DNA from: Cordylochernes scorpioides
Lineage: Eukaryota; Arthropoda; Arachnida; Pseudoscorpiones; Chernetidae
Reading direction: 5' to 3'
DNA length: 64,000 nt
Assembly: GCA_030710605.1 (NCBI GenBank)
Contig: CP092863.1
Location: 137,672,994-137,736,993 of the forward strand
Position numbers and translations under genes: made by a program. The notes beneath the pieces were generated by a model that was not told the origin of the DNA, made no database searches, and was given only the letters and a program-made list of their open reading frames with translations. Positions 18,433 through 61,315 of the stretch are shown here, piece by piece; position 1 is the stretch's first letter; each line of letters begins with the position of its first letter.

Positions 18433-18729
18433 AAACTATATTTTAATGATTTTTATTTAATATAAAAAAAGATGTATTGATAGTAATTTCTCTAAAATAG
18501 TATTTATTGTAAAAAATATATATATAATAGAATATATAGTAGATTCTTCCTCTAAACAACACCTAGTTTCAGAACCAAATTGTCCTTTAGGGAGAGGTGT
18601 CCTCTTAACGGAGAGTTGCTAATTAGTAAAAATGGCAATTTATCCGATAAAAAAATCTCCTTTGTAAAAAGGTGTCTACTCATGGAGAGGTTCTAATGTA
18701 TTTTAACTCTAATTACATTTATATATATA

Positions 18730-18900
18730 AACTGGGTTGGCCACAAATATCAGGGAACAGGCTAAATCAATGTTTAGTTGATTTCTGTTCCACCAGATGG
18801 CGCTCTGCCTTCTGTAAAGCACATGTTCTCCTGGTCAGGATATGCCATTTTTAATATTGATTTCAACACATGATCTTTTTATCTTTTATTTTTTTCTTTA
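18730..18900 (+). mobile_element. Family D ribozyme-linked repeat, copy 1 (body only)
   Basis: Starts GGGTTGGCCACAAATATCAG, contains AGATGGCGCTCTGCCTTCTG and ends near TGATTTCAACAC. It lacks the hammerhead region present upstream of the copy at 34976. Confidence 0.8.
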
Positions 18901-19329
18901 GTTTTTTTCATATATAGACTTGATGAGTAATTTACGACAAGTTTTAAAAGAAAAACAAATATTTAATTAATAGATAATAAATATTGATTATTCTAGCTAA
19001 ATCTACATCATATGTATTTTTAATAAATGCGCATTAATAAATTAAAGTGTGTTATGATAATTAAAACCGTTTCAACGGATCTTCGGCAGTTACCCGTCAT
19101 ATGCTGGCTATAAGAGGAATATGTTCAAAGATTTATTGGAAAATAGGGCAAACATAGAACCATGATAATATTGTAAAATTTCAATATTTTAAATAAAAGC
19201 TAAGGTTAATAAAGGGCTTTTTCTCTCCTCTTCTGATGAGATATGATAATTTATTACCATATAATAATTAATATATTTATTGAAAATATCAAAAACAAAC
19301 CTATTATTCATTAAAATCAACATCACGCC
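18901..19329. other. No recognised feature
   Basis: AT-rich spacer. Confidence 0.4.
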
Positions 19330-22196: not shown

Positions 22197-22344
22197 TTAG
22201 CTTTGATTTTTGCCTCGAACGTGTTTTTTGTAAATCACAATTTGATTGTACACAAGAATACAGTTTTGATACATTTTAAAAAAAAAGTTTTTTGAACCTC
22301 TGTAAAGATTAGAAATTTTACTGGAATATAAATTATTGTATATT

Positions 22345-22500
22345 AAAAATGACATATCCTGACCAGAAGCACATGTGCTTTACAGAAGGCAGAGCGCCAT
22401 CTGGTGGAACAGAAATCAACTAAACATTGATTTAACCTGTTCCCTGATATTTGGCCAACCCAATTTCTTGATAAATCAAGAAAAGCCATCCACGAATCCA
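22345..22500 (-). mobile_element. Family D ribozyme-linked repeat, copy 2
   Basis: Minus-strand copy that begins at about 22494 with TTCGTGGATGGCTTTTCTTG. This is the sequence around and just after the predicted cleavage site of the hammerhead at 34933-34986. The CTGACGA and GAAA core is absent. The body then follows as in the other copies. Confidence 0.8.
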
Positions 22501-22539
22501 TTTTTCATAAATTATTGTACGTATAGTTGTGGGAAGATG

Positions 22540-27600: not shown

Positions 27601-27821
27601 TATAGATTTCACTCTGTGTATTTAGAGTCTATACTTAACATTCACTTTAGATAAATCACGTATTTTTATATCCTGTCTTAATTAAAATGAATCCATTTGT
27701 TAGAAACACTGTTTATTATTGTGAATGGAAAATTCTATTTAGATATATTGAATATGTCATAAAATTATAATATGTAGCTTTCGCCAATTTCACGGTGTGT
27801 GTTGCCACATTTATTTATTTA

Positions 27822-28193
27822 ATGAAGTCAGCACCAGCCGCAGTAGCCCCACCACTCCTAATACCTACTCCGATGACCCATGAGCTCCTGACCGTTCCTG
27901 CACCCCCTATAGCTCTCACTCCTGAGGGCGATGTGGACATAGAAAAGTTACTCATCCGATTGAAGGATCGAGAATTCTTGCACTCCATATATAACAATTA
28001 TAATGTGGTCAGGATGGATATCACACTCGCGGTCTATTACGAAGAAGAAACGGAGCACCTCCTCGGGCTACTCACGCCTGAAGACAAGATTCTTCTCGAC
28101 AAATTCTTCGACATTATCATTAAACATGTTCCGAACATGAACTCCCCAAATGGCAGGGATCTGTCTAGATTCAAGGCGGCTTTAAGCTCCTGA
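27822..28193 (+). CDS. Uncharacterised intronless protein-coding gene, 123 aa
   Basis: This is the strongest coding block. Base composition rises sharply and third positions are C/G-rich, unlike every chance ORF nearby. I chose Met 27822 over the in-frame Met 27795 because the first nine codons look like AT-rich leader; 27795 would give 132 aa. The N-terminal third is proline/alanine-rich (residues about 4-40). The rest looks acidic and helical, with EKLLIRLKDREFLHSIYNN at about 48-66 and VYYEEETEHLLGLLTPEDK at about 75-93. It has no signal peptide, membrane segment or cysteines. An AATAAA follows at 28303. I do not recognise the family. It could be the last exon of a larger gene, but I see no strong acceptor upstream. 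Confidence 0.7.
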   Translation: MKSAPAAVAPPLLIPTPMTHELLTVPAPPIALTPEGDVDIEKLLIRLKDREFLHSIYNNYNVVRMDITLAVYYEEETEHLLGLLTPEDKILLDKFFDIIIKHVPNMNSPNGRDLSRFKAALSS

Positions 28194-34187: not shown

Positions 34188-34784
34188 TTTAAAAGAAATA
34201 TTTTATATATAAATTCAAATATTATGAATTCACTCATGATATTAAAGAACTTATTTAATCCTAATCTATATTCGATTAAGTGATAATTAAATAAAATTCA
34301 TAAGAAATTGTTGTAAAATCACTCGCTATAGCCTTTATTTTTACATTTCTAAATTATAATACTTTAATTCAAAATTGTGCATAAAGGCTCTATATTAAGT
34401 ATATTTTATAATAACTTCACATATACGTGTAAGAAATACATTGCAAGTTTACGAATAGCCATAATTAAGGATGGCAGAAGAAAACACATAAAAGGTCAAA
34501 ATAGGAATTCTATGATGGGAAATAATAGACATGATATATGGCTGTATTATTTATGAAATACAACGTAATTATATGATTTCCCCTCCAAGCATACTGATTA
34601 AGGCTTCTATGGGGCTATTAATAATGTTTTTATGTTTTGTTATGGCATTTAATGCTTCTATCAAATTCCTATATCTTTGGTATCTTATTATAGCTTTTTT
34701 ATTTTATTGGTGGTGTGTATAGAGGTCTGGTTTCATTCAGAATTATATATTTCTTCAAAAAATAATCACATATATAATAAAAAT
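34188..34784. other. No recognised feature
   Basis: AT-rich spacer. Confidence 0.4.
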
Positions 34785-35172
34785 GGCATATCCTGACCAG
34801 GAGCACATGTGCTTTACAGAAGGCAGAGCGCCATCTGGTGGAACAGAAATCAACTAAACATTGATTTAGCCTGTTCCCTGGTTTTTCAAGAAGCCACTTG
34901 AACCAAAAAAATATTTTTGGTCGCAGTGGTACAGCCAACTCCACGCTGACGAGCGCCAAAAGCGCGAAACGCGTTCGTGGATGGCTTTTCTTGATTTATC
35001 AAGAAATTGGGTTGGCCAAATATCAGGAACAGGTTAAATCAATGTTTAGTTGATTTCTGTTCCATCAGATGGCGCTCTGCCTTCTGTAAAGCACATGTGC
35101 TCCTGGTCAGGATATGCCATTTTTATTATTGATTTCAACACCTGACCTTTTTATCTTTTTTTTTTCTTTAAT
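34785..35172. mobile_element. Family D inverted pair around a hammerhead ribozyme
   Basis: A minus-strand D body (34785-34890, containing CAGAGCGCCATCTGGTGGAA) faces a plus-strand D copy (34976-35172). A spacer between them carries the complete hammerhead at 34933-34986. The plus-strand copy begins exactly at the predicted cleavage product end, CGTGGATGGC. Confidence 0.85.
34933..34986 (+). ncRNA. Type I hammerhead self-cleaving ribozyme
   Basis: Stem I strand AGCCA (34933-34937), internal AC, TCCACG (34940-34945); core CTGACGA (34946-34952); stem II GCGC (34953-34956), loop CAAAA, GCGC (34962-34965); GAAA (34966-34969). Stem III is a palindromic CGCG (34970-34973) followed by T and T. Stem I closes with CGTGGA (34976-34981) and TGGCT (34982-34986). 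Predicted cleavage is after 34975, with U at position 17. All invariant core bases of the hammerhead are present. A tiny stem III is known from retrotransposon-borne hammerheads (Penelope-like elements and retrozymes), which are thought to act as dimers. Activity is inferred. Confidence 0.88.
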
Positions 35173-35199
35173 TTATATATATATGGGCAGAAATTGGAG

Positions 35200-40282: not shown

Positions 40283-40638
40283 TCTATAAAAATAAAGGTC
40301 GCCTCTCCCGTCAAAATAGACGTTAAAACTAAGCTCTGACCGTCTCCGCAAACTAGCGGACTCGGGTCAGTGAAAAAAAAAACACGACACCAGCCTTCGA
40401 AAATTGAGAAGCGTCCACCTAGAGACTATGGTTTCGGGCTAATGGCCCTCGTCAGTCTAGGGCGGACTTTATTCTAATAAGATCCACAAAGGATTCAAAT
40501 GAAACATTTACAATCATCCAAAGAAGTATTTAACTGGTAGAGTGGCTAGTCAAAATAGTCTGCTAAGTTTTCTAGTTTTCAGAGACGGTCAATAGATGGC
40601 TCTTAGTTTTAACGTCCATTTGAAGGACGAGGGAGGTG
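40283..40638. mobile_element. Family M TIR element, copy 2, with hammerhead interior
   Basis: TIRs GGTCGCCTCTCCCGTCAAAA and a complement ending GAGGGAGGTGACC match copy 1. Inside, a second inverted pair (TGACCGTCTC and GAGACGGTCA) encloses about 250 bp absent from copy 1, including a minus-strand hammerhead. Confidence 0.75.
40413..40467 (-). ncRNA. Type I hammerhead self-cleaving ribozyme
   Basis: Read on the minus strand from 40467: GTCC, internal GC, CCTAGA (stem I, 40461-40456); CTGACGA (40455-40449); stem II GGGC, loop CATTA, GCCC; GAAA (40435-40432); stem III CCATAG; T, C; then TCTAGG (40423-40418), an unpaired T, and GGAC (40416-40413) closing the outer stem I. C at position 17 (40424) is the preferred cleavage base. 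Stem II is fully paired. Stem III (ACCATAGT) has one C/A mismatch as a self-palindrome. All core nucleotides match the hammerhead consensus. Confidence 0.87.
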
Positions 40639-40924
40639 ACCTATATATATATAACATTCTAAATATTTCGGTTTAAACCTGTTTGAACTGGGGGGTCTCC
40701 ATTTTATTTCCCACGCTTATCTCTCTTTCACTTCAAAACGTCCATCTATATTTCTATCATTTTTTATTTTTTTATTCCTTTTTAATGACGTGTATTAGAC
40801 GATGAATCAACATAACATTTTAAACTTTAACTTTAAAAAAAGCTTCGTAAAAATACATGTTATATATGGTATTATATATAAATATATTATTAGAAATTAT
40901 TTATTTTTGATGATATTTAAATTT

Positions 40925-45613: not shown

Positions 45614-45674
45614 AAGCCGTCCCTGTACTGATGAGGGCTATAGCCTGAAACCATGGTATACAGGTTGTTGGCTT
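45614..45674 (+). ncRNA. Type I hammerhead self-cleaving ribozyme
   Basis: Outer stem I AAGCC (45614-45618) pairs with GGCTT (45670-45674) across internal loops GTC and TTGTT. Inner stem I CCTGTA (45622-45627) pairs with TACAGG (45659-45664). Core CTGATGA (45628-45634); stem II GGGC, loop TATA, GCCT; GAAA (45647-45650); stem III CCATGG, then T (45657) and A (45658). Cleavage is predicted after 45658. The first stem II pair is a G-U wobble. With A15.1 and U16.1, stem III is the perfect palindrome ACCATGGT and would need a partner molecule to pair fully. The antisense 70-codon ORF here is a shadow. Confidence 0.9.
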
Positions 45675-46412: not shown

Positions 46413-46487
46413 TGTCCAGGAGCGGGAATCGAACCCACAACCTTCTGCTTACCGGGCAGGTGCCATGTCCACTAGGCTATCCTGGAC
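46413..46487 (-). tRNA. tRNA-like gene or tRNA pseudogene, Thr(GGU)-like position
   Basis: Minus strand, 75 nt. An 8-bp acceptor (GTCCAGGA with TCCTGGAC), A box TAGCCTAGTGGACATGGC, exact B box GGTTCGATTCC, and a T stem GTGGG/CCCGC. The anticodon loop reads CCGGTAA on a CTGC/GCAG stem, placing GGT at 34-36. Position 33 is C instead of the near-universal U, the acceptor has one extra pair, and 27-43 is mismatched. No CCA is encoded, as usual in eukaryotes. It could be a real tRNA with unusual features, a pseudogene or a SINE head. Flanking CGAACGGA and TCCGTTCG form an inverted repeat. Confidence 0.6.
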
Positions 46488-58600: not shown

Positions 58601-58648
<48 letters not shown>

Positions 58649-59067
58649 TGAAGATTTGGCAATCCATAATTAAATTATATTTAAAAAAAGATGCATATAT
58701 TGGATTTCTAACTTATTTTTATTGTTCCAATATTTCGAGGGGCAACTCGCCTCTCTTTATCGAGGGATGTTTGTGTTTTTCACTAGAACACGCGCGCACG
58801 CGTACACCACTCTCGTTCTACAAGGCCAATGAAAGAACTGTATCTTTGACTCAACTATTGCCTTCAGTTTATATACAGAAAATAATTATATTTATATTTA
58901 ATATTATAGATTATTATTTGTCTATGGAAGATATAGAGATTTATATACAACACAGTGTAATTGTAAAAAAATTGTGTTTACATATTAATTCTAAATTTAA
59001 AAAATTTTTTAAAGCAAAAAAAATAAATTATTAAATAAAAGGTATATACATAGTTATATATAAATAA

Positions 59068-59490
59068 TTAAGAAATGAATTCTTTATAAGATTTCTGGAA
59101 AAATCAATTTTTCTGTTTATACTCTGTTTATCTTCGGCAGAAGCCCAACTTTCTAAAAACAGTCTACTATGCTTTTCTGTTATGTTTTTGTATATAATTG
59201 TGGTCTGTTTGAAATCTGGTATATGGCTATTGTTTAGGGAGTGGTCTACTAGTAGGGATAATGGTTTGTAGTTTTTTAAAGCTGCTTTATGTTGATTGAT
59301 ACGATCTTTAAGTGATTTACCTGTTTCTCCAATGTATGTAGCTTGACATGTCTGGCAGGGAATTTTGTAAATTACATTGGTTGTATTTTCTTGGTTTGAA
59401 ATATTTTTGTATCTGAGTGGCGTAAGATTTGTCTTAGATTTTGTGCAGATTGATATGTTGTAATTATATTATATCTCTTTAAAATTCGGG
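59068..59490 (-). pseudogene. GIY-YIG endonuclease domain of a Penelope-like element, frameshifted
   Basis: Minus strand, contiguous with the reverse transcriptase. It matches the intact frame at 60391-60792, except that A5 replaces A6 at about 59403-59412 (ACAAAAATATTTC). This shifts the reading frame before the IYKIPCQTCQATYIGE motif. Confidence 0.85.
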
Positions 59491-60378
59491 CAATTCTCTC
59501 CGAACCGTAGCTATATGGAATAGAGCAATAACTTTTTTGAGACTGATCACGACTATTATTTGAAGGTATATCTCTCTGTTTATAAAAATGTTTTTCAATA
59601 AATTTTTTTGGATAATTATTATTTATTAATTCTTTGAAATTCTATTTCTTTCTTCTGTTGCACTATTTCTATTTGAATGGTGTGTTTCTATTCTTTTAGA
59701 AAGAGATTTCACTACGGCTATTTTGTTATGTATGGGGACCAAAGGAGCTAAAATTCAAATAGTTTCCGGTGTGAGTGGGTTTCCTTAAATGCAAGTTTCG
59801 ATGTTATATTGATTCCTTTTAAGCTGATGTCCAAAAAGGCTAGGGAATTATTGCTTTCTTTTTCATATGTGAACTTTAAAAAAGGTTTGAGACTATTGAG
59901 AAAACGTATGAAGCTGTCAATGTCTATTTCTGTTAGACAAAAAAATGTCATCAATATATCGTAGCCATAATATTATTTTAAATTGGTTTGAATTAATTAT
60001 TTGTTTATCTATTTCGTTCATAAATATGTTGGCTAATGCAGATGAAATCGGGTTGCCCATTGGTAGGCCTTTAATTTGCCGGAAGAATCTGTCTTTGAAA
60101 ACTGAAATAACTATTGTCTAAACAAAGTTTGATTAAATCTATTAATGCTTCTTTAGAGAGGGGCAGAACTATTTCTGGGTGGATTTCAAGAAATGATTGG
60201 AGGGCCAGGAGTGCTTCATCGTGCGGGATTGAGGTGTAGAGAGATTCTATATCGAAGGAAACCATCCTGCTGTCATTTGATATTTGAACGGTTTTGATAG
60301 CTTCAACAGCTACTATGGGATTGGGTACTGTGTGAGGTAGTTGCTTTTGGAATGGAGAGATGACTGAAGATAGGAATT
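59491..60378 (-). pseudogene. Penelope-like reverse transcriptase, 5' truncated, frameshifted
   Basis: Reads KFLSSVISPFQKQLPHTVPN, then MVSFDIESLYTSIPHDEALL (motif A), a frameshift near 60095, GLPMGNPISSALANIF (motif B), YIDDIF (catalytic motif C, about 59955), another shift, then FLKFTYEKESNNSLAFLDIS. The order and the GLPMGNP-to-YIDD spacing are typical of Penelope-like enzymes. The thumb leads into CSIPYSYGSERIARILKRYN and the GIY-YIG arm. The N-terminal part of the domain is missing at the inverted junction. Confidence 0.9.
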
Positions 60379-60390
60379 TTAAAGAGATAT

Positions 60391-60792
60391 AATATAATTA
60401 CAACATATCAATCTGCACAAAATCTAAGACAAATCTTACGCCACTCAGATACAAAAAATATTTCAAACCAAGAAAATACAACCAATGTAATTTACAAAAT
60501 TCCCTGCCAGACATGTCAAGCTACATACATTGGAGAAACAGGTAAATCACTTAAAGATCGTATCAATCAACATAAAGCAGCTTTAAAAAACTACAAACCA
60601 TTATCCCTACTAGTAGACCACTCCCTAAACAATAGCCATATACCAGATTTCAAACAGACCACAATTATATACAAAAACATAACAGAAAAGCATAGTAGAC
60701 TGTTTTTAGAAAGTTGGGCTTCTGCCGAAGATAAACAGAGTATAAACAGAAAAATTGATTTTCCAGAAATTTATAAAGAATTCATTTCTTAA
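60391..60792 (+). CDS. GIY-YIG endonuclease domain of the inverted copy, open frame
   Basis: About 133 codons without an ATG near the start: RYNIITTYQSAQNLRQILRH, then NVIYKIPCQTCQATYIGETG, KSLKDRINQHKAALKNYK, and an end at FPEIYKEFIS. It shows IYKI, CxxC, the Y-I-G pair and the conserved R of the KDR motif, as in Penelope-like elements. It lacks its own reverse transcriptase on this strand, so it is a fragment despite the intact frame. Confidence 0.85.
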   Translation, partial: NIITTYQSAQNLRQILRHSDTKNISNQENTTNVIYKIPCQTCQATYIGETGKSLKDRINQHKAALKNYKPLSLLVDHSLNNSHIPDFKQTTIIYKNITEKHSRLFLESWASAEDKQSINRKIDFPEIYKEFIS

Positions 60793-61174
60793 TTATTTAT
60801 AAATAACTATGTATATACCTTTTATTTAATAATTTATTTTTTTTGCTTTAAAAATTTTTAAATTTAGAATTAATATGTAAACACAATTTTTTACAATTAC
60901 ACTGTGTTGTATATAAATCTCTATATCTTCCATAGACAAAATAATAATATCTATAATATTAAATATAAATATAATTATTTTCTGTATATAAACTGAAGGC
61001 AATAGTTGAGTCAAAGATACAGTTCTTTCATTGGCCTTGTAGAACGAGAGTGGTGTACGCGTGCGCGCGTGTTCTAGTGAAAAAAACAAACATCCTCGAT
61101 AAAGAGAGGCGAGTTGCCCCTCGAAATATTGGAACAATAAAAATAATTAGAAATCCAATATATGCATCTTTTTT

Positions 61175-61200
<26 letters not shown>

Positions 61201-61209
<9 letters not shown>

Positions 61210-61315
61210 AACTAATATATGAATCGGATATTCTATATTCAACTGTTATAATTATGGTCGTATATAATCCATCTTCGCATATAATTTTATTATTAAAAAA
61301 TTGATTTTTTAATAG
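61201..61315 (+). other. Intron end preceding the candidate exon
   Basis: AT-rich spacer that ends in a T-rich tract and acceptor, TTGATTTTTTAATAG (61301-61315). Confidence 0.4.

What the first reader, a model, noticed from the sequence alone, without database searches (positions are those of the whole stretch)
34933..34986. Hammerhead ribozyme whose cleavage site marks the start of a repeat family
Core CTGACGA/GAAA, stem II GCGC/GCGC, stem III CGCG and stem I TCCACG/CGTGGA plus AGCCA/TGGCT are all intact. The family D copy at 22345-22500 begins at TTCGTGGATGG, at the predicted cleavage junction, without the ribozyme core. This is the pattern expected if self-cleaved RNA was the integration intermediate.
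Basis: partly seen in the sequence, partly recalled or inferred. Interest (0 to 1): 0.9.

Follow-up and report, generated by a model that had tools for sequence, protein, structure and literature searches.

The report
Retrozyme family inserted the Penelope way
The spot is a real self-cutting RNA motif in a jumping element with thousands of copies in this genome, and the way the copies examined sit in the DNA suggests that they are copied in by a known class of retrotransposon (Penelope-like), with the RNA self-cut setting the start of only a minority of copies.

Summary
The hammerhead at 34933-34986 is real: correct core, stems kept by paired changes in relatives, no match in 60 resampled windows. 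It belongs to a ~352-bp unit that also occurs in tandem and has thousands of copies in a 2.62-Gb genome: a metazoan-type non-LTR retrozyme. Genome-wide, 1067 copies break at the cleavage junction against 65-313 at four nearby positions. But in a sample not chosen for its 5' ends only 4 of 90 ends lie in the 4 nt before the cut. The sharp ends are 3' ends, at two sites 54 nt apart. Two-copy insertions are mostly head-to-head (52 against 1) with one outer end at each site (51 against 2 of 59). Published work describes this layout for Penelope-like elements, and one lies at 58645-61210 of this window. Best reading: a retrozyme inserted by Penelope-like machinery through two-sided target-primed reverse transcription, cleaved RNA being one template among others. 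No RNA, circle or enzyme was tested.

The parts
34774..34886 (-). Left arm: inverted retrozyme copy, unit positions U43-U155 (U1 = first base after the predicted cut); outer end at the first 3' site (U155)
34879..35173 (+). Right arm: sense copy, U255 through the ribozyme to about U198; outer end of the second (tail) class
34933..34986 (+). Type I hammerhead ribozyme with very short stem III; predicted cut between 34975 and 34976 (GUU/C)
22340..22496 (-). Retrozyme copy starting at TTCGTGG (cut junction) and ending at the U155 site; no ribozyme core
22328..22340 (.). 13-bp target-site duplication, left copy (ATAAATTATTGTA)
22507..22519 (.). 13-bp target-site duplication, right copy; 10 filler bases (possibly a minute second arm) lie between it and the copy
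18729..18907 (+). Third copy in the window, U29 to about U206, without ribozyme core
58645..61210 (.). Broken Penelope-like element in the same layout: inverted arms 58676-59487 / 60374-61182 (98.4% identical), GIY-YIG domains at 59031-59468 (-) and 60364-60792 (+), RT-like remnants between (recognised by eye from recalled motifs), in an (AT)n target, with about 30 nt of tail on the left arm only

Best explanation
Family D is a metazoan-type non-LTR retrozyme with a ~352-nt unit. Transcripts of tandem copies are cut at the hammerhead into unit-length RNAs, linear and probably circularised (inferred). The enzyme of a resident Penelope-like element (PLE) makes a staggered cut in A+T-rich DNA. 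It then reverse-transcribes retrozyme RNA from both target ends, starting inside the RNA at two sites (about U155 and U209), one per target strand. The two cDNAs are joined head-to-head at variable points, giving an inverted pair, a one-sided tail and a target duplication. Templates that pass the ribozyme junction (circles or uncut multimers) give read-through and tandem copies. Linear, cleaved templates give cDNAs that run off at the cut, which makes the 5'-end peak. Shown by sequence: ribozyme with covariation, units and arrays, head-to-head bias, two 3' sites and their pairing, target duplications, 5' peak, PLEs with the same layout. Inferred: use of PLE protein, circles, run-off.
For: Tandem 351-353-bp units each with the ribozyme. 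Of 138 distinct 3' ends 74 lie at U151-164 and 49 at U205-212. Strand order among 105 insertions: 52 minus-plus, 1 plus-minus, 1 four-part, 51 of one strand. Outer ends of 59 two-copy insertions: different classes in 51, same in 2, unclassed in 6, p=1.6e-13 on the classed 53; without a near-duplicate and the loci picked for their 5' end 49, 2 and 6 of 57; in the subset 32, 2 and 2 of 36. Shared flank words of 12 bp or more in 35% of insertions against 8% for shuffled flanks. 5' peak counts. A PLE pair in the window has the same layout and one-sided tail, and the 11 neighbour pairs closer than 10 kb among 146 listed GIY-YIG hits are all minus-plus. PMC3846280 (passages): PLE inverted repeats most often head-to-head, a 31-bp tail optionally on one of the inverted pLTRs, short target duplications. 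PMC11167929 (parts 1-2 of 4): a PLE protein cuts and extends both strands at A+T-rich DNA and starts at two internal sites that bound the tail. Circular fold of the unit z=-5.8.
Against: No sequence ties this retrozyme to a given PLE: the window PLE gave no match to the unit below E 0.96, and L145 only weak A+T-rich ones (best E 0.001, filter off). The tail is 54 nt, not the ~30 nt of the window PLE or the 31 nt published. Single-arm copies are common: 64 against 59 two-copy insertions (51 against 52 by the stricter), although two of 41 solo 5' ends carry a minute opposite arm and a third may. 55 of 105 insertions show no shared flank word of 10 bp or more, and many words that do occur are plain (AT)n. 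In PMC11167929 ribozyme cutting was not needed for insertion in vitro and no RNA ends were found at the cut, so the run-off part has no support there. The TT before the peak is unexplained: if RNA simply began at C, most copies should show other bases.
Confidence: 0.78

Rival explanations
1. One reading: HHR-cleaved linear RNA is the normal integration intermediate, so copies begin at 34976.
For: Genome-wide peak before TTCGTGG, 1067 against 65-313; flush target duplications in L031 and L138.
Against: Only 4 of 90 ends in the sample lie in the 4 nt before the cut; 61 stop short and 21 read through. Tandem arrays need circular or uncut templates. Most 5' ends lie within 25 nt of an opposite copy (105 of 146).
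Confidence: 0.12
2. A retrozyme mobilised by a LINE; inverted pairs come from twin priming.
For: Variable 5' truncation and target duplications are LINE-like.
Against: As generally described (recalled), twin priming inverts the 5' part of one cDNA and leaves one 3' end at the target. Here both outer ends are 3' ends, and mostly of two different classes. LINEs of this genome were not examined.
Confidence: 0.07
3. A foldback or MITE-like DNA transposon that captured a hammerhead: the inverted arms are terminal inverted repeats.
For: 104-nt inverted arms, 98% complementary, at 34774-34877 / 35026-35129.
Against: Arm lengths and inner junctions differ from copy to copy, the two outer ends differ by a tail, and solo and tandem copies occur.
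Confidence: 0.02
4. The 5' peak is an artefact: CpG decay of intact ribozymes at the CG just before TT, or an RT pause, rather than run-off at the cut.
For: L135 is such a decayed copy; the patterns accept different shares of A+T-rich flanks at different positions; the peak sits two bases before the predicted cut as aligned.
Against: 15 of 16 fetched places are breakpoints; two changes would be needed, and AA, GA, TT and others occur besides TA. Corrected roughly for flank composition the excess is still 2.5-9.6 fold.
Confidence: 0.1

Closest known systems
Metazoan non-LTR retrozymes (Cervera and de la Pena 2020, PMC7229834; parts 1-4 of 6 read)
   Same: Type I hammerhead in a 170-400-nt unit, tandem copies, low G+C, target duplications longer than 4 bp, highly paired RNA; mussel units of ~350-390 bp; a weak helix III as in amphibians
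   Different: That paper names PLEs as candidates from shared hammerheads, tandem copies and co-existence. In the parts read I saw no head-to-head pairs, two 3' sites or 5'-end peak.
Penelope-like elements (PMC3846280, passages; PMC11167929, parts 1-2 of 4)
   Same: Head-to-head inverted copies, target duplications, A+T-rich targets, tail on one side, two internal start sites, partial tandems, hammerhead in the repeat
   Different: PLEs encode RT and GIY-YIG; a 352-bp unit cannot hold them. Tail here 54 nt against about 31. No hammerhead was seen in the window PLE.
Plant LTR retrozymes (PMC4918200, listing only; description from PMC7229834 and passages of PMC7761336)
   Same: Non-autonomous, ribozyme-bearing, circRNA-based
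   Different: Type III hammerhead, LTRs, PBS/PPT, 4-bp duplications, ~700-bp units
Schistosoma W-elements (PMC8490949; passages)
   Same: Satellite-like repeats, some with active type I hammerheads, and signs of mobility
   Different: The passages seen describe no two-sided Penelope-type layout

Membership tests
Metazoan non-LTR retrozyme | Type I hammerhead in the unit | tested here: met
Metazoan non-LTR retrozyme | Small tandem units, about 150-450 bp, low G+C | tested here: met
   351-353 bp, four inverted plus four sense ribozyme sites in L009
Metazoan non-LTR retrozyme | Target duplications longer than 4 bp | tested here: met
   Shared flank words of 10 bp or more in 50 of 105 insertions against 17% for shuffled flanks; 13 bp at the 22340 copy
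Metazoan non-LTR retrozyme | No LTR, PBS or PPT | not tested
   No search for these was run
Metazoan non-LTR retrozyme | Abundant linear and circular unit-length RNA; in vitro self-cleavage | not testable with these tools
   No RNA data; only a predicted circular fold, z=-5.8
Penelope-like element (as the element itself) | Own RT and GIY-YIG ORF | tested here: not met
   The unit is 352 bp, too short for them; not filed as a PLE
Mobilised by PLE machinery | Head-to-head pairs with tail on one side only | tested here: met
   52 against 1; 51 against 2 of 59, 6 unclassed
Mobilised by PLE machinery | PLE resident in the same genome | tested here: met
   Window 58645-61210; 146 GIY-YIG matches among 150 scored of 17015 first-look candidates; that most are PLEs is inferred
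Mobilised by PLE machinery | Start-site sequence shared with a given PLE, or activity of its protein on this RNA | tested here: inconclusive
   No clear match to the window PLE or L145; a weak likeness of the first PLE end to the U155 end was seen by eye only; activity not tested

The most novel reading that the evidence does not exclude
Retrozymes are inserted by a PLE enzyme that as a rule uses two different start sites, one per target strand (51 against 2), probably by engaging one RNA with both halves of a dimer. The hammerhead feeds this with both circular templates (tandem arrays) and cleaved templates whose run-off cDNA is joined through a TT/AA match, giving the ATT-CGTGG peak.
Probability: 0.4. 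Interest if true: 0.75.

Novelty: new member of a known kind. Interest (0 to 1): 0.6.

Why it matters
Which enzyme moves animal retrozymes has been inferred from shared hammerheads, tandem copies and co-existence with PLEs (PMC7229834, PMC7761336). In the copies sampled here the insertion layout is that of PLEs, which turns the idea into something testable. The two-site rule and the 5' peak also say which RNA forms were templates. I found no report of this for retrozymes in the listings of my searches, which cover open-licence PMC papers only.

Tried and rejected
Rfam at gathering thresholds found only a tRNA; the hammerhead needs an E-value search. Window PLE and L145 as sequence partners: no convincing match. 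A recalled PLE helix-turn-helix Pfam accession was considered and not searched. Filing it as a foldback transposon, LINE product or PLE was rejected for the reasons given. The organism was not identified. My guess that L145 is a permuted (Naiad-type) PLE rests on domain order and recall; Pfam confirmed only its GIY-YIG.

The TT before the 5' peak was first read as target sequence because the PLE endonuclease favours ATT (PMC11167929). The shared flank words of pairs do not generally end in ATT, so joining through a TT/AA match is now preferred but unproven.

Limits of the counts: one search pools loci chosen in different ways (one search hits cover the ribozyme, and one search hits the 3' body) and drops copies under 90% identity, duplicate junctions and tandem continuations. 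include the near-duplicates L041/L042 and 16 loci picked for their 5' end; one search leaves out 3 odd layouts. The subset comes from 80 of the 100 listed places of 4944 matches, all on contig C1. A first tally of that subset (13 read-through, 69 short) misplaced copies that start at U163-U230; one search replaces it. The genome-wide breakpoint counts ask for exact 28-mers and are not corrected for duplicated segments; the flank correction uses the window's base composition.

Full report
Observation. The hammerhead at 34933-34986 reads as described, except that stem III is about 2 bp. Rfam HH9 hits it at 31.6 bits, below the gathering score of 52. A strict descriptor finds three hammerheads in the window and none in 60 resampled windows. 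Relatives show compensatory changes: U-A to A-U in stem I (5 of 12 rows) and C-G to G-C in stem II (4 of 12); 94.8% of cells are paired against at most 41.4% for slid structures. Of the shuffle controls, cells changed on both sides (14) are never reached, but pairs changed on both sides (5) are reached by 62 of 500. The 12 rows were picked by hand. A related subfamily has GUC where this copy has GUU, in line with the same cut position.

The element. The window lies in a 2.62-Gb genome of 24 contigs; the window is 29% G+C. A 47-mer of the element body has 4944 exact matches and the 35-mer of ribozyme plus cut has 3702. On contig C2 four inverted and four sense ribozyme sites stand head-to-head, spaced 351-353 bp; tandem-repeat analysis gives 4.4 and 3.9 copies of 352 bp, 99% alike. 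I number one of these units U1-U352 from the predicted cut. Its RNA circle is predicted to fold at -104 kcal/mol, z=-5.8 against 150 shuffles.

Ends. Of 138 distinct 3' ends, 74 lie at U151-164 and 49 at U205-212. Of 146 distinct 5' ends, 105 lie within 25 nt of an opposite copy, and positions scatter over the unit. The fullest 4-nt stretch is U349-352 with 9 ends against a mean of 1.7, but U92-95 has 8. In the subset fetched through the 3'-body 47-mer, 4 of 90 lie in U349-352, 4 more within -10 to +2, 21 read through the cut and 61 stop short. Exact genome-wide counts of copies whose two preceding bases both differ from the unit: before U346 65, U351 1067, U352 313, U1 151, U7 205; the excess at U351 is 2.5 to 9.6 fold after a rough correction for flank composition. 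In 100 listed places the base before TT is A in 74. Of 16 places fetched, one was a decayed ribozyme. L138 has a 10-bp target duplication ending exactly at the C after the cut, and L031, from another set, one of 14 bp; the other 14 breakpoint places show no clear flush duplication, and several of them join an inverted copy.

Layout. Of 105 insertions 52 are minus-plus, 1 plus-minus, 1 four-part and 51 of one strand. In 59 two-copy insertions the outer ends are of different 3' classes in 51, the same in 2 and unclassed in 6 (p=1.6e-13 on the classed); 49, 2 and 6 of 57 without a near-duplicate and the picked loci; 32, 2 and 2 of 36 in the subset. Single-arm copies number 64. Shared flank words of at least 12 bp occur in 35% against 8% for shuffled flanks; 55 of 105 have none of 10 bp. 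The finding's own locus is such a pair (34774-34886 minus, 34879-35173 plus).

Comparison. PLE inverted repeats are described as most often head-to-head, with a 31-bp tail optionally on one of the inverted pLTRs and short target duplications (PMC3846280, passages). A purified PLE cuts and extends both strands at A+T-rich DNA from two internal sites that bound the tail; ribozyme cutting was not needed there, and reads ending at the cut were not found (PMC11167929). The window holds a broken PLE in this layout: arms 58676-59487 and 60374-61182, GIY-YIG on both, in (AT)n, with about 30 nt of tail on the left arm only. Among 146 listed GIY-YIG matches (150 scored of 17015 candidates) the 11 pairs closer than 10 kb are all minus-plus.

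Reading. The element is a retrozyme, and its insertion pattern is that of a PLE. Cervera and de la Pena proposed PLEs as movers from co-existence and shared features (PMC7229834, PMC7761336). The pattern here is more direct evidence, but still indirect: no shared sequence with a given PLE was found and no biochemistry was done. The ribozyme cut marks one minor class of 5' ends, which fits run-off on cleaved RNA. The copy at 22340-22496 is of this class, though 10 filler bases separate it from its target duplication, perhaps a minute second arm.

Noticed in passing
window about 40412-40467 (-), element about 40285-40653: A second, different hammerhead family (CTGACGA, GGGC/GCCC stem II, GUC cut) inside an inverted-arm element; relatives in L014 and L032, the latter with two ribozymes 319 bp apart.
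   Followed up: partly
window about 45616-45670 (+): A third hammerhead family (CTGATGA, GGGCT/AGCCT); the stretch has relatives in L021/L047, L072, L018 and L027.
   Followed up: partly
window 58645-61210: Penelope-like inverted pair with one-sided tail in an (AT)n tract; the reading frames are broken.
   Followed up: yes
L145 (G000:C22:25102678): A GIY-YIG domain that stands ahead of RT-like sequence; perhaps a permuted PLE (RT likeness by eye).
   Followed up: partly
window 27771-28193 (+): Open frame of 140 aa without a Pfam match at its cut-off; possibly a host exon.
   Followed up: no
window 46414-46486 (-): tRNA gene above the Rfam gathering score.
   Followed up: no
5' ends at U19-U32 across loci: 18 of 146 5' ends fall in this stretch, at the CTTGATTTATCAAG hairpin of the unit; perhaps an RT stop.
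   Followed up: no
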